From assembly GCF_000378945.1 (NCBI RefSeq), contig NZ_KB900539.1, forward strand, positions 1,466,527 through 1,530,526: 64,000 bases of DNA, read 5' to 3'. Source of the DNA: Methyloversatilis universalis EHg5. Lineage in GTDB: Bacteria; Pseudomonadota; Gammaproteobacteria; Burkholderiales; Rhodocyclaceae. The translations under genes and the position numbers were made by a program. This document shows positions 13,124-33,767 of the stretch, one piece after another. The first letter of the stretch is position 1. Every line of letters begins with the position of its first letter. Under the pieces are notes generated by a model. It was not told the origin of the DNA and ran no database searches. It saw only the letters and a list, made by a program, of their open reading frames with translations.

Positions 13124-13213
13124 GTGGGAGCGGCGCCCTCGCCGCGATGCATTGCCCGGACCGAGCGTCCTCCGCCGCTCCGTCACGCATCGCGGCGAGG
13201 GCGCTGCTCCTAC
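13124..13213. repeat. REP-like palindromic repeat pair
   Basis: Two inverted copies of a 25-base GC-rich motif fill the gap between the TolC-like gene and the oxidase. The first, at 13124-13150, reads GTGGGAGCGGCGCC then CTCGCCGCGATGC. The second, at 13187-13213, is its reverse complement with two changes. The same motif recurs near 15.2, 18.5, 18.6 and 33.7 kb. Positions 13124-13136 match the intact 13-base target of the IS110 element. Confidence 0.88.
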
Positions 13214-18487: not shown

Positions 18488-18562
18488 ATCGCGGCGGGGC
18501 GCCGCGCCTACGACGGCGAAGGCCTTTGCAGATTCGGTGGGAGCGGCGCCTCGCCGCGATTG
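18488..18562. repeat. REP-like palindromic repeats
   Basis: Two copies of the dispersed palindrome lie just after cueR. The unit at 18488-18511 is in one orientation and partly degenerate. The unit at 18537-18562 is in the opposite orientation and contains the intact GTGGGAGCGGCGC at 18537-18549, the reverse complement of the IS110 target. A third unit follows at 18600, forming an inverted pair with it, and that one is split by the insertion element. Confidence 0.87.
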
Positions 18563-18599: not shown

Positions 18600-18620
18600 C
18601 ATCGCGGCGGGGGCGCCGCT
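18600..18620 (+). repeat. Left half of a REP-like unit interrupted by IS110
   Basis: CATCGCGGCGGGGGCGCCGCT ends abruptly at 18620. The missing right arm, CTCCCACGGGTCACGG, is found at 19820-19835 on the far side of the element. Joining them at a single CT restores a REP-like unit whose core GCGCCGCTCCCAC matches the copy at 33755-33767. Apart from a CT shared by both ends there is no target duplication. Confidence 0.9.
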
Positions 18621-18622
18621 TG

Positions 18623-18628
18623 TATGTT
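18623..18628 (+). promoter_or_regulatory. Left-end half of a circle-junction promoter
   Basis: TATGTT at 18623-18628 can act as a -10. In the circular form of the element, the right end joins the left end through CT. TTGCGC at 19801-19806 then lies exactly 17 bases upstream of this -10 (15 bases of right end plus TG of the left end). Junction promoters formed on excision are known in the IS110 family. The -35 is weak (TTG only). Confidence 0.6.
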
Positions 18629-18634
18629 CATCTG

Positions 18635-18810
18635 CGGCAAGCGTAGTAGTGGACGCTTGTCGGGCGGAGGGACGAGCGCCGCATCTGACGGCAAGCACGT
18701 ACAGACAGTGGGAGAGATGTCCCGCCTTCACCCCCGAGCACCGATGAGGAATCCTTCGGACCGCGTCTGACCCGGTACCGACCATATCCTGCAAGCCTGT
18801 GCCCAGGTGA
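18635..18810 (+). ncRNA. Predicted IS110 bridge RNA
   Basis: A target loop is closed by the stem GGGAC (18669-18673) with GTCCC (18719-18723). Inside it, GCGCCGC (18676-18682) is identical to the left target, and GTGGGAG (18708-18714) is the reverse complement of the right target including the CT core. A second, donor part has GAATC (18749-18753), identical to the element's right end before CT. It also has CCTGCAAG (18788-18795), which pairs with the left end starting at CT in 7 of 8 positions, counting one G-U. A possible closing stem is GCAC (18738-18741) with GTGC (18799-18802). Boundaries are estimated: the start comes from the junction promoter and the end from the last stem. Confidence 0.8.
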
Positions 18811-18850
18811 CCCCGACAAGCCCTTCAACCATAGTCCGGAGGTGCTCATC

Positions 18851-19816
18851 GTGACAAGTCAGACCGAATCCCCCCGCTTTGGCATCGACGTCTCCAAGCG
18901 CTGGCTGGACATCGCCGAGTACGGCCGCTCGCCGGTGCTGCACATCGACAACACCGCCCCGGCCATCCGCAGCTGGCTGCGCACCTTGCCCCCGAGCGCC
19001 TGCCACATCGCCTGCGAATCCACCGGCACCTACCACCGCGCGCTGGTCGAGCTGCTCATCGGCGCCGGTCATCGGGTGTATCTGATCGACGGCTACACGC
19101 TGTCCAGATACCGCGACACGCTGGGCCAGCGCGCCAAGACCGATCGGCACGACGCGGGGCTGATCGCCCGCTATCTCGCCCACGAAGGGGCGCGTCTGCG
19201 CCCGTTCTCGCTGCCGCCCCGTGCGGTGACCGACCTGCGCGCCCTGCTGCGCCGTCGCGCCACCCTGGTGCGTTGCCTGGGCCGCATGCGTCAGAGCATG
19301 GAGGAGCTGCCCGGCTTCGCCCGCCAGGTGCGGGCCGTCACCGAGCGGATCCAGGCGCTGATCAAACGGCTGGAACAGCGCATCGCCGCGCTGATCGGCA
19401 CCAGCGGCTGGGGCGACCCGTACCGGCGCATTCTCAAGGTCGAAGGTATCGGCGCACTCACCGCCGCCGGTCTGTGCGCCACGTTTCACCGCGCCGCATT
19501 CGGCCGGGCCGATGCCTTCATCGCCTTCCTCGGCCTGGATGTGACCGTGCGCCAATCGGGCACCCAGCGCGCACGCGGAGTGCTCAGCAAGAAGGGCGAT
19601 GCCGAGATGCGCCGCCTGCTCTACAACGCCGCCATGGCGGCCAGCCGATCCAGTACCTGGCAGCCCTTCTACCAGCGCATGCTCCAGCGCGGATTCAGCC
19701 GCACCCAGGCGCTGGTCGCACTGGCCAGAAAGCTCGCAAGGATCGCCTTCTCGCTAATGAAGAACGCTTCCGACTACGTCCCTAAACAACACGAAAACGC
19801 TTGCGCTCGAACATAG
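18851..19816 (+). CDS. IS110-family transposase/recombinase
   Basis: A 321-residue DEDD recombinase. The RuvC-like N-terminal domain has FGIDVSKRWLDIAEYG (first Asp), HIACESTGTYHRAL (Glu) and AKTDRHDAGLIARYL (the final Asp pair). A coiled-coil linker follows, then the Transposase_20 domain with LKVEGIGALTAAGL, AFLGLDVTVRQSG and LSKKGDAEMRRLLYNAAMAA, which includes the serine-active region. GTG at 18851 is favoured because GGAGG lies eight bases upstream; a GTG at 18842 is also in frame but overlaps that GGAGG. It would recombine donor and target DNA held by the bridge RNA. No frameshift or stop interrupts it. Confidence 0.95.
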   Translation: MTSQTESPRFGIDVSKRWLDIAEYGRSPVLHIDNTAPAIRSWLRTLPPSACHIACESTGTYHRALVELLIGAGHRVYLIDGYTLSRYRDTLGQRAKTDRHDAGLIARYLAHEGARLRPFSLPPRAVTDLRALLRRRATLVRCLGRMRQSMEELPGFARQVRAVTERIQALIKRLEQRIAALIGTSGWGDPYRRILKVEGIGALTAAGLCATFHRAAFGRADAFIAFLGLDVTVRQSGTQRARGVLSKKGDAEMRRLLYNAAMAASRSSTWQPFYQRMLQRGFSRTQALVALARKLARIAFSLMKNASDYVPKQHENACART

Positions 19817-19859
19817 AATCTCCCACGGGTCACGGCGGCGAGCGGGCCGCCGACCCGAC

Positions 19860-33623: not shown

Positions 33624-33767
33624 CATCGCGGCGAGGCGCCGCTGCCACGGGTCCGGTGCGACTGGCCGGGCCAGGGCTGTGGGAGCGGCGCCTCGCCGCG
33701 ATTCAGACCTTCAGACTGGCGCCCTCGCTGTTCAAACGCCGCATCGCAGCGAGGGCGCCGCTCCCAC
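33624..33767. repeat. Cluster of three REP-like palindromes
   Basis: Three copies of the 25-base palindrome lie at 33624-33648, 33679-33702 (inverted) and 33741-33767. The second contains GTGGGAGCGGCGC and the third GCGCCGCTCCCAC (33755-33767), each an intact copy of the 13-base IS110 target. They fill the space between convergent genes. Confidence 0.9.

What the first reader, a model, noticed from the sequence alone, without database searches (positions are those of the whole stretch)
18635..18810. Bridge RNA of the IS110 element, with all four guide segments readable
The non-coding left end folds into a loop whose GCGCCGC equals the left target up to the core C, and whose GTGGGAG complements the right target CTCCCAC. 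Downstream, GAATC equals the element's right end up to the core C, and CCTGCAAG pairs with the left end CTTGTATG in 7 of 8 positions including one G-U. Left guides match the top strand and right guides its complement, and both pairs centre on CT. This is the logic of the IS621 bridge RNA, seen here in an element I do not recognise.
Basis: partly seen in the sequence, partly recalled or inferred. Interest (0 to 1): 0.88.

Follow-up and report, generated by a model that had tools for sequence, protein, structure and literature searches.

The report
RNA-guided jumping gene targeting REP repeats
A small mobile element in a bacterium, probably Methyloversatilis, very likely carries a bridge RNA that leads it into a repeated genomic palindrome, and in related copies the RNA guide and its target change together, which makes it a clear new example of a recently discovered kind of RNA-guided recombinase.

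Summary
The reading holds. Window 18619-19821 is an IS110-group element, present in nine copies in its genome, all at one point of a REP-type repeat (GGCGCCG|CT|CC[C/T]AC). Its left end encodes a bridge RNA of the IS621 plan.

The window's two target guides alone are beyond chance (3 of 20000 shuffles). Across relatives, 19 distinct left guides match their own target (7.2 of 9) better than others' (4.3; 0 of 20000 permutations); right guides likewise. Two copies in one relative's genome differ by one base in guide and target alike. Donor guides follow three altered donors, though one copy has an altered guide with an unaltered donor. Stems covary; TTG stands 17 bp before the -10 in 28 of 31 joined ends.

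Corrections: the conserved stem is 18662-18670/18720-18727 with bulged A18668, not 18669-18673/18719-18723. GAATC alone is not significant. The right donor guide is better read as discontiguous.

The element lies in a sister clade of IS621/ISCro4, with 4-7 bp subterminal repeats, longer than the 2-3 bp reported for the IS110 group. Bridge RNAs, REP targeting and natural reprogramming are already published. RNA expression and recombination were not tested.

The parts
18602..18618 (+). Left half of the interrupted REP-type repeat (left target, LT), ending GGCGCCG before the core
   Evidence: 9 of 9 copies end in GGCGCCG here; 115 exact GCGCCGCTCCCAC sites in the genome against 2 for the reversed control pattern
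18619..18620 (+). Core CT, left copy
   Evidence: CT on both sides of the copies (in one search it is part of the search keys)
18619..18628 (+). Right donor (RD, CTTGTATGTT)
   Evidence: CTTGTATG[GT]T was the search key, so its conservation there is a condition of entry
18623..18629 (+). Left arm of 7-bp subterminal inverted repeat (TATGTTC); TATGTT is also the -10 of the predicted circle promoter
   Evidence: the first four pairs (TATG/CATA) are a condition of entry there
18637..18661 (+). 5' stem-loop of the bridge RNA
   Evidence: sequence and MFE; relatives have a hairpin of different sequence there (read by eye)
18662..18727 (+). Target-binding loop; closing stem 18662-18667+18669-18670 with 18720-18727, bulged A18668
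18675..18682 (+). Left target guide AGCGCCGC (7-nt match GCGCCGC 18676-18682)
18684..18705 (+). Inner hairpin of the target loop: TCTG-ACG-loop-CGT-A-CAGA with bulged A18701
   Evidence: 18 of 22 left ends with A bulge and 3 or more inner pairs (in L099 the best-scoring place was another one; one search finds the usual hairpin there), against 0-6 of 22 in 12 shuffles
18708..18714 (+). Right target guide GTGGGAG, pairs with the core too; the next base A18715 could serve as handshake base (inference)
18731..18810 (+). Donor-binding loop; outer stem GCAC 18738-18741 / GTGC 18799-18802, inner stem TCGG 18756-18759 / CCGA 18778-18781
   Evidence: covariation in helices 2 and 3
18748..18753 (+). Left donor guide GGAATC (5-nt exact match GAATC 18749-18753)
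   Evidence: LDG follows changed donors in L096, L097, L120; L015 has GGATC with an unchanged donor
18784..18795 (+). Right donor guide ATATCCTGCAAG, read as GCAAG with CTTGT plus AU with AT, bulged bases between; C18796 is the likely handshake base
   Evidence: sequence; scheme from PMC11208158; base after CAAG is C in 20 of 21 and LT-1 is G in 20 of 21
18838..18842 (+). Ribosome-binding site GGAGG of the recombinase
   Evidence: sequence; inference
18851..19816 (+). IS110 recombinase (321 aa; start GTG 18851 rather than 18842, which overlaps the ribosome-binding site); RuvC-like DEDD domain and Tnp domain
   Evidence: run from 18842; from 18851
19801..19806 (+). TTGCGC, predicted -35 that comes to lie 17 bp from TATGTT in the circle
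   Evidence: TTGnnn at this spacing in 28 of 31 distinct end pairs (no shuffle control)
19809..19815 (+). Right arm of the subterminal inverted repeat (GAACATA); the stop codon TAG 19814-19816 lies partly inside it
19812..19821 (+). Left donor (LD, CATAGAATCT) ending in the right core CT 19820-19821
19820..19826 (+). Right target CTCCCAC, the reverse complement of the REP head GTGGGAG
   Evidence: CTCCCAC in 8 of 9 copies, CTCCTAC in L008

Best explanation
An IS110-group insertion sequence whose left end is transcribed, mainly from a promoter that forms only when the excised element closes into a circle, into a bridge RNA of about 180 nt. The RNA has a 5' hairpin, a target-binding loop and a donor-binding loop. 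The first loop pairs with the bottom strand left of the target core (GCGCCG C) and with the top strand right of it (CT CCCAC); the second pairs with the element's own joined ends (GAAT CT TGTATG). The recombinase, bound to this RNA, joins circle and target at CT and so inserts into REP repeats. Shown by sequence: boundaries, target, RNA loops by covariation, guide-target co-change, some guide-donor co-change, conserved junction promoter motif, recombinase fold (predicted model). Inferred: transcription, RNA length, RNA binding, strand exchange.
For: Nine copies at one REP position; guide-target match by permutation, 19 guide types, left 7.21 vs 4.30 of 9 and right 6.21 vs 4.18 of 7, 0 of 20000 each; own-left-end chance 3 of 20000; single-base co-change of guide and target in two copies of one genome, L119/L130; stem covariation; TTG 17 bp before the -10 of the joined ends in 28 of 31; invariant D13 E56 D98 D101 S236 in 26 rows; PDB sequence hit to IS621 E 3.5e-24 and Foldseek best hits IS621 and ISCro4, E about 1e-17.
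Against: No RNA or activity data. Left-guide match is weak in L113, L116, L120 (4, 5, 5 of 9), and the own target is not the best one for 4 of 19 left and 4 of 19 right guides. L018, L019 and L088 sit at a second REP type that fits their guide less well, L090 at a poor match, and L008 has RT CTCCTAC opposite GTGGGAG (a G-T pair would be needed). The left guide does not pair with the T of the core in the window copy (A opposite) nor with either core base in the 77%-identical group (GA). GAATC is short and common by chance, and L015 has donor guide GGATC with donor GAATC. In one search one of five measures, further pair types, goes the other way (14 against a shuffled mean of 16.3). MFE folding is not exceptional. 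No Rfam family reached its gathering score.
Confidence: 0.94

Rival explanations
1. The recombinase itself recognises the REP palindrome or its hairpin, and the RNA matches are incidental.
For: All nine own copies sit in the same repeat, so the window's genome alone cannot separate RNA from protein recognition.
Against: Close recombinases go to different targets that follow their guides: L119/L130 in one genome (86% identical), L053 against L082/L083 in another (96 and 98%), L098/L099 (94%). L114, 47% identical, has the window's guide and the window's target, while 77-78% relatives have neither. Several relatives use targets that do not look like REPs to me (L058, L095, L119; not tested).
Confidence: 0.03
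2. The left-end RNA acts mainly as an untranslated leader or small RNA that controls recombinase expression, as reported for Asr9/Ssr9 of ISPpu9.
For: ISPpu9, a REP-targeting IS110-family element, has such RNAs (PMC8450116, passages seen); the left end here is also the leader of the gene.
Against: A pure regulator has no reason to track target and donor DNA. The two roles do not exclude each other.
Confidence: 0.03
3. Chance short matches in GC-rich sequence.
For: GAATC occurs in 15% of shuffles; MFE z -0.61.
Against: 3 of 20000 shuffles for the two target guides together, and 0 of 20000 permutations across relatives.
Confidence: 0.01

Closest known systems
IS621 / ISCro4 bridge recombinases (IS110 group)
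   Same: DEDD RuvC-like plus Tnp recombinase of similar fold, bridge RNA in the left end, four guides, CT core, promoter across the circle junction, REP target; bulged As in the stems resemble the flipped-out As of IS621 and GCAAG its right donor guide (PMC11208158 passages)
   Different: 28-29% identity in the structure alignment; separate clade with 100/100 support; donor GAATCTTGTATG instead of CAGTATCTTGTAT; 4-7 bp subterminal repeats; right target CTCCCAC, where most IS621-type relatives have CTAC (L121 has CTCTG)
ISPpu9, ISPpu10, ISPa11, ISRm19 (REP-targeting IS110-family elements; PMC1525189 passages)
   Same: IS110 family, insertion at one point of REPs; a P. putida REP begins TGTGGGAGCGGGC (PMC2817692 passages), the same head as here
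   Different: Sequences not compared here; ISPa11 is an IS1111-type element with its RNA downstream of the gene (PMC11187229 passages)
seekRNA of IS1111 and IS110 elements (PMC11187229, passages)
   Same: RNA from the non-coding end chooses the target; natural reprogramming already reported there (ISEc11/ISXne4)
   Different: IS1111 elements carry it usually downstream and have sTIRs usually 11-13 bp long
TIGR-Tas
   Same: Distant fold similarity (TM 0.60) and a sub-cut-off NCBIfam hit
   Different: An IS with its own ends; a TIGR array was not searched for

Membership tests
IS110 family, IS110 group | DEDD RuvC-like domain (PF01548) and Tnp domain (PF02371) with catalytic serine | tested here: met
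   (D13 E56 D98 D101 S236 invariant in 26 rows)
IS110 family, IS110 group | Long non-coding left end with the RNA upstream of the gene, short right end, CT core at both ends | tested here: met
   230 nt between left core and GTG 18851; 3 nt (AAT) between stop and right core
IS110 family, IS110 group | Bridge RNA fold: 5' stem-loop, target loop, donor loop | tested here: met
   Both loops by covariation; 5' hairpin only by reading
IS110 family, IS110 group | Target guides complementary to and covarying with the target | tested here: met
   with exceptions (own target not best for 4 of 19 on either side)
IS110 family, IS110 group | Donor guides complementary to and covarying with the donor | tested here: inconclusive
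   Left donor guide follows 3 of 3 changed donors (L096, L097, L120) but L015 has a changed guide with an unchanged donor; right donor guide hardly varies
IS110 family, IS110 group | Promoter across the joined ends of the circle | tested here: met
   TTGnnn-17-TATG[GT]T in 28 of 31 distinct end pairs, by sequence only; the -10 part was a condition of entry, the TTG was not
IS110 family, IS110 group | RNA expressed, bound by recombinase, needed for recombination | not testable with these tools
   needs RNA-seq and assays
IS110 family, IS110 group | Subterminal repeats only 2-3 bp (PMC11208160 section 12) | tested here: not met
   4-7 bp: 13 of 31 have 7, 11 have 6, 5 have 5, 2 have 4; the first 4 were a condition of entry; a description rather than a defining feature
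IS621 clade | Recombinase inside the IS621/ISCro4 clade | tested here: not met
   Four IS621-type rows form their own side, 100/100; L093 of that side matches ISCro4 at 1.8e-105 and IS621 at 7.7e-103, the window protein IS621 at 3.5e-24. IS621 itself was not in the tree
IS1111 group | Guide RNA downstream of the gene in a long right end | tested here: not met
   3 nt between stop codon and right core
IS1111 group | Subterminal repeats of 7 bp or more | tested here: inconclusive
   7 bp in the window copy, 4-7 in relatives
TIGR-Tas | NCBIfam TIGR_Tas cut-off 100 bits | tested here: not met
   30.9 bits

The most novel reading that the evidence does not exclude
A clade of REP parasites in which the right guide is locked on the conserved head of the REPs (GTGGGAG or GTAGGAG) while the left guide keeps being rewritten, base by base and within single genomes, to follow the local REP palindrome; at its ends, a covarying 6-7 bp inverted repeat adds a protein-read recognition layer between the IS110 and IS1111 types.
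Probability: 0.33. Interest if true: 0.55.

Novelty: new member of a known kind. Interest (0 to 1): 0.42.

Why it matters
The clade gives natural experiments in bridge-RNA reprogramming: close recombinases (86-98% identical) whose guide and target differ by one or a few bases. That makes it possible to ask how a bridge RNA changes address and still finds a home, and it offers recombinases unlike IS621 in sequence with guides already readable. The mechanism itself is published.

Tried and rejected
No Rfam family reached its gathering score in the window. The truncations first seen in L008 and L009 come with 100-N assembly gaps and L007 has 3 Ns, so I rejected the idea of internally deleted copies. 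Orphan bridge RNAs: none found, the left end matched only at the nine copies. MAFFT misaligned the 3' stem strand of L056/L057 in A1, so the counts understate the pairing of that stem; one search repeats the test without alignment and adds a shuffle control. In one search four measures exceed the shuffles (0, 2, 0 and 0 of 500 as high) and one does not (further pair types, 499 of 500 as high); the structure was derived from the same alignment. The subterminal repeat covariation at position 5 (A:T 21, C:G 8, T:T 2 of 31) rests on few independent changes (4 on the tree for the left arm, 2 independent pairs on supported branches), so it is suggestive only. The plasmid search gave 1931 records, none at 60% identity or more. 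The ISPpu10 paper is not held, so I could not compare that element.

Rows dropped before counting: of 99 loci oriented by tblastn, tabulated 50 and left out 49 (count): 48 for want of a CTTGTATG[GT]T left end or one of four right-end strings, and L010, a duplicate of L007, by hand. The right-end strings were written after I had seen the ends, so the elements counted share these ends by selection. Most of those left out are IS621-type or more distant; L007 and L109 lacked a readable right end, L008/L009 failed for their gaps, L096 starts at the locus edge (its donor is cited, its target is unknown). Two places are in the table twice (L015/L055 the same coordinates; L020/L054 the same flanks); this does not touch, which used one representative for each of 19 distinct guides. 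The left-guide field of L058, where the search string had caught an earlier motif, was cut by script before the test. The structure alignment A1 used 13 of 20 left ends listed.

Full report
What is there. The element begins with the core CT at 18619-18620 and ends with the core CT at 19820-19821 (1201 bp with one core). The genome G000 holds nine copies: six with a full reading frame, one with a frameshift and 3 Ns, two with 100-N assembly gaps. All nine lie at the same point of a repeat: left flank ending GGCGCCG in 9 of 9, right flank CTCCCAC in 8 of 9 and CTCCTAC in one. The 13-mer GCGCCGCTCCCAC occurs 115 times in the genome, against 2 for the reversed control; the longer pattern TCGCGGCGNGGNGCCGCTCC 35 times against 0. 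These look like REPs of the RAYT-associated type: REPs beginning GTGGGAGCGG or GTAGGAGCGG are listed for Pseudomonas species in PMC2817692 (table passages), and the genome has two Y1_Tnp matches, one of them (2181479-2181715) with copies of the 13-mer on both sides, at 2181103-2181154 and from 2181823 on. The genus is Methyloversatilis by inference: G118, placed in the same genus, has a contig of the same length, 4123015, as the M. thermotolerans record NZ_KB889967.1.

The protein. Pfam DEDD_Tnp_IS110 and Transposase_20, NCBIfam IS110 RNA-guided transposase over its cut-off, PDB sequences IS621 and ISCro4. The AlphaFold model (pLDDT 86.8) matches IS621 and ISCro4 structures at E about 1e-17, TM about 0.8. 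D13, E56, D98, D101 and S236 are invariant in the 26 rows; their equation with the DEDD motif and S241 of IS621 is my reading of the alignment and of PMC11208158 passages. The reading frame probably starts at GTG 18851 behind GGAGG 18838-18842; the relatives at 61% have ATG at this place.

The guides in the window. The two target guides in the observed order occur in 3 of 20000 shuffled left ends; the donor guide GAATC in 3048 of 20000. So the target half of the claim stands on the window alone, the donor half needs relatives.

Relatives. Searches of 395 genomes of the family, 399 of the order and 369 of the class (drawn from larger groups), one scan of named genomes, and 13 further stretches gave 99 loci, of which 50 have the ends of this subfamily (how they were chosen is told in Tried and rejected). 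They hold 19 distinct left guides. Each guide was scored against its own left target and against the others': 7.21 of 9 against 4.30, 0 of 20000 permutations as high, own target best or joint best for 15 of 19. Right guides: 6.21 of 7 against 4.18, 0 of 20000, 15 of 19. Permutation does not correct for relatedness, but the clearest cases are between close relatives: L119 and L130, in one genome and 86% identical, have guides TTCCCTGG and TTCCTTGG in front of targets TTCCCTGG and TTCCTTGG; L098 and L099 (94%) have AATGACCG and AATGTCCG with targets AATGACAG and AATGTCCG; in G182, L053 (AGTCCG) sits at AGGCCG while L082 and L083 (AGCTCG; 96 and 98% identical to L053) sit at AGCTCG; L117 and L118 have right target CTCCTAC and right guide GTAGGAG where the rest of the clade has CTCCCAC and GTGGGAG. 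L114, 47% identical and from another family, has the same guide and target as the window element, while the 77-78% relatives of the same genus have other guides and other left targets. The guide therefore follows the target, not the tree.

Against this. L113, L116 and L120 match in only 4, 5 and 5 of 9. In M. thermotolerans one guide (AGTCCG) is found at two REP types (AGCCCG and AGGCCG). L090 went into the left end of another copy of its own element, at a poor match. L087 keeps only CGCCG of its REP. L008 of the own genome has CTCCTAC opposite GTGGGAG.

Donor guides. Most relatives share the donor GAATC and the guide GAATC; L059-L062 and the G253 copies have only GAAT in the guide. In three elements the donor differs, and the guide with it: L097 GGAA/GGAA, L120 GGATC/GGATC, L096 GAACC/GAAC. 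One copy, L015, has the guide GGATC with the common donor; it may be a dead copy. The right donor guide GCAAG is nearly constant; the base behind CAAG is C in 20 of 21, and the base before the target core is G in 20 of 21, as expected of the handshake pairing described in PMC11208158 (passages), though the two hardly vary and so do not test it.

Structure. RNAalifold on 13 left ends gave 17 pairs, 9 with changes on both sides. Pairing 94.1% and covariation 0.418 exceed all 500 shuffles and all slid versions; the number of further pair types does not exceed the shuffles (14 against 16.3). The closing stem of the target loop, GG[C/T]GG-A-GG with [T/C]CCC[G/A]CC in most, is complete in 20 of 22 left ends, with C-G, U-A and U-G at its third pair; after shuffling of the 3' part the count is 6.2 on average and at most 12 of 21 in 200 trials. 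The hairpin inside the target loop has the form TCTG-X-loop-X'-A-CAGA (TGGG...CCCA in L119 and L130), with different X, in 18 of 22 (L099 at another best-scoring place; other bulge letters 2-4 of 22; 12 shuffles 0-6 of 22). IS621 has flipped-out As in both loops (PMC11208158).

Ends. In the joined circle, TTGnnn stands 17 bp before TATG[GT]T in 28 of 31 distinct end pairs (exceptions L088, L113, L118; no shuffle control), the arrangement of -35 in the right end and -10 in the left end reported for IS621 (PMC11208158). The ends carry an inverted repeat of 7 bp (13 of 31), 6 (11), 5 (5) or 4 (2); the first four pairs were a condition of entry. Its fifth position covaries (A:T 21, C:G 8, mismatch 2) but over only 4 changes on the tree. 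PMC11208160 section 12 reports 2-3 bp for the IS110 group and 7-17 bp for IS1111; PMC11187229 (passages) says that the repeat is absent or short and imperfect in the rest. The right arm runs into the stop codon of the gene.

Place among known systems. The tree puts the window element in an 11-row clade (100/100) whose members all have the right target CTCC[C/T]AC, among lines with other targets and apart from the IS621 type (L093 of that side is close to ISCro4 and IS621). Some of these other lines (L059-L062, L089, L091, L092) sit at ATCCGGG or GCCGGG followed by CTAC; ATCCGGGCTAC is the reverse complement of GTAGCCCGGAT, with which a REP listed for P. mendocina begins. So REP heads may have been taken as targets at two different offsets; this was not tested further. 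Bridge RNAs (PMC11208160), REP targeting by IS110 elements (PMC1525189 passages) and natural reprogramming (PMC11187229 passages) are in print. The search for Methyloversatilis with 'insertion sequence' listed six papers, none with this element in its title or the start of its abstract; that is no proof that none exists, and ISfinder could not be searched. I file it as a new member of a known kind.

Noticed in passing
window 13124-13136, 18537-18549, 33679-33691, 33755-33767: Further copies of the REP 13-mer, partly as inverted doublets; the element interrupts one partner of such a doublet (18537-18549 is the other).
   Followed up: partly
18623-18629 and 19809-19815: 7-bp subterminal inverted repeat whose right arm runs into the stop codon of the recombinase; its fifth position covaries across relatives.
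   Followed up: partly
L090 (G253 C4:3166900-3169900): An element inserted into the left end of another copy of itself at CCCTCGGCT|AC, a partial match to its guide ATCCGGGCT: it looks like a natural off-target insertion.
   Followed up: no
L015-L019, L088: One guide (AGTCCG) at two REP classes (AGCCCG, possible G-U, and AGGCCG), one mismatch each: it may be a compromise guide.
   Followed up: no
L011-L014 in G000: Four more distant IS110-type matches (35-37%); the hit on the 4-kb contig C2 has the same length, identity and E-value as the one at C1:77483, so C2 may be a duplicate or a small replicon.
   Followed up: no
L059-L062, L089, L091, L092: Another line of the subfamily targets ATCCGGG or GCCGGG followed by CTAC; ATCCGGGCTAC is the reverse complement of a RAYT-type REP head (GTAGCCCGGAT), at another offset from the core.
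   Followed up: partly
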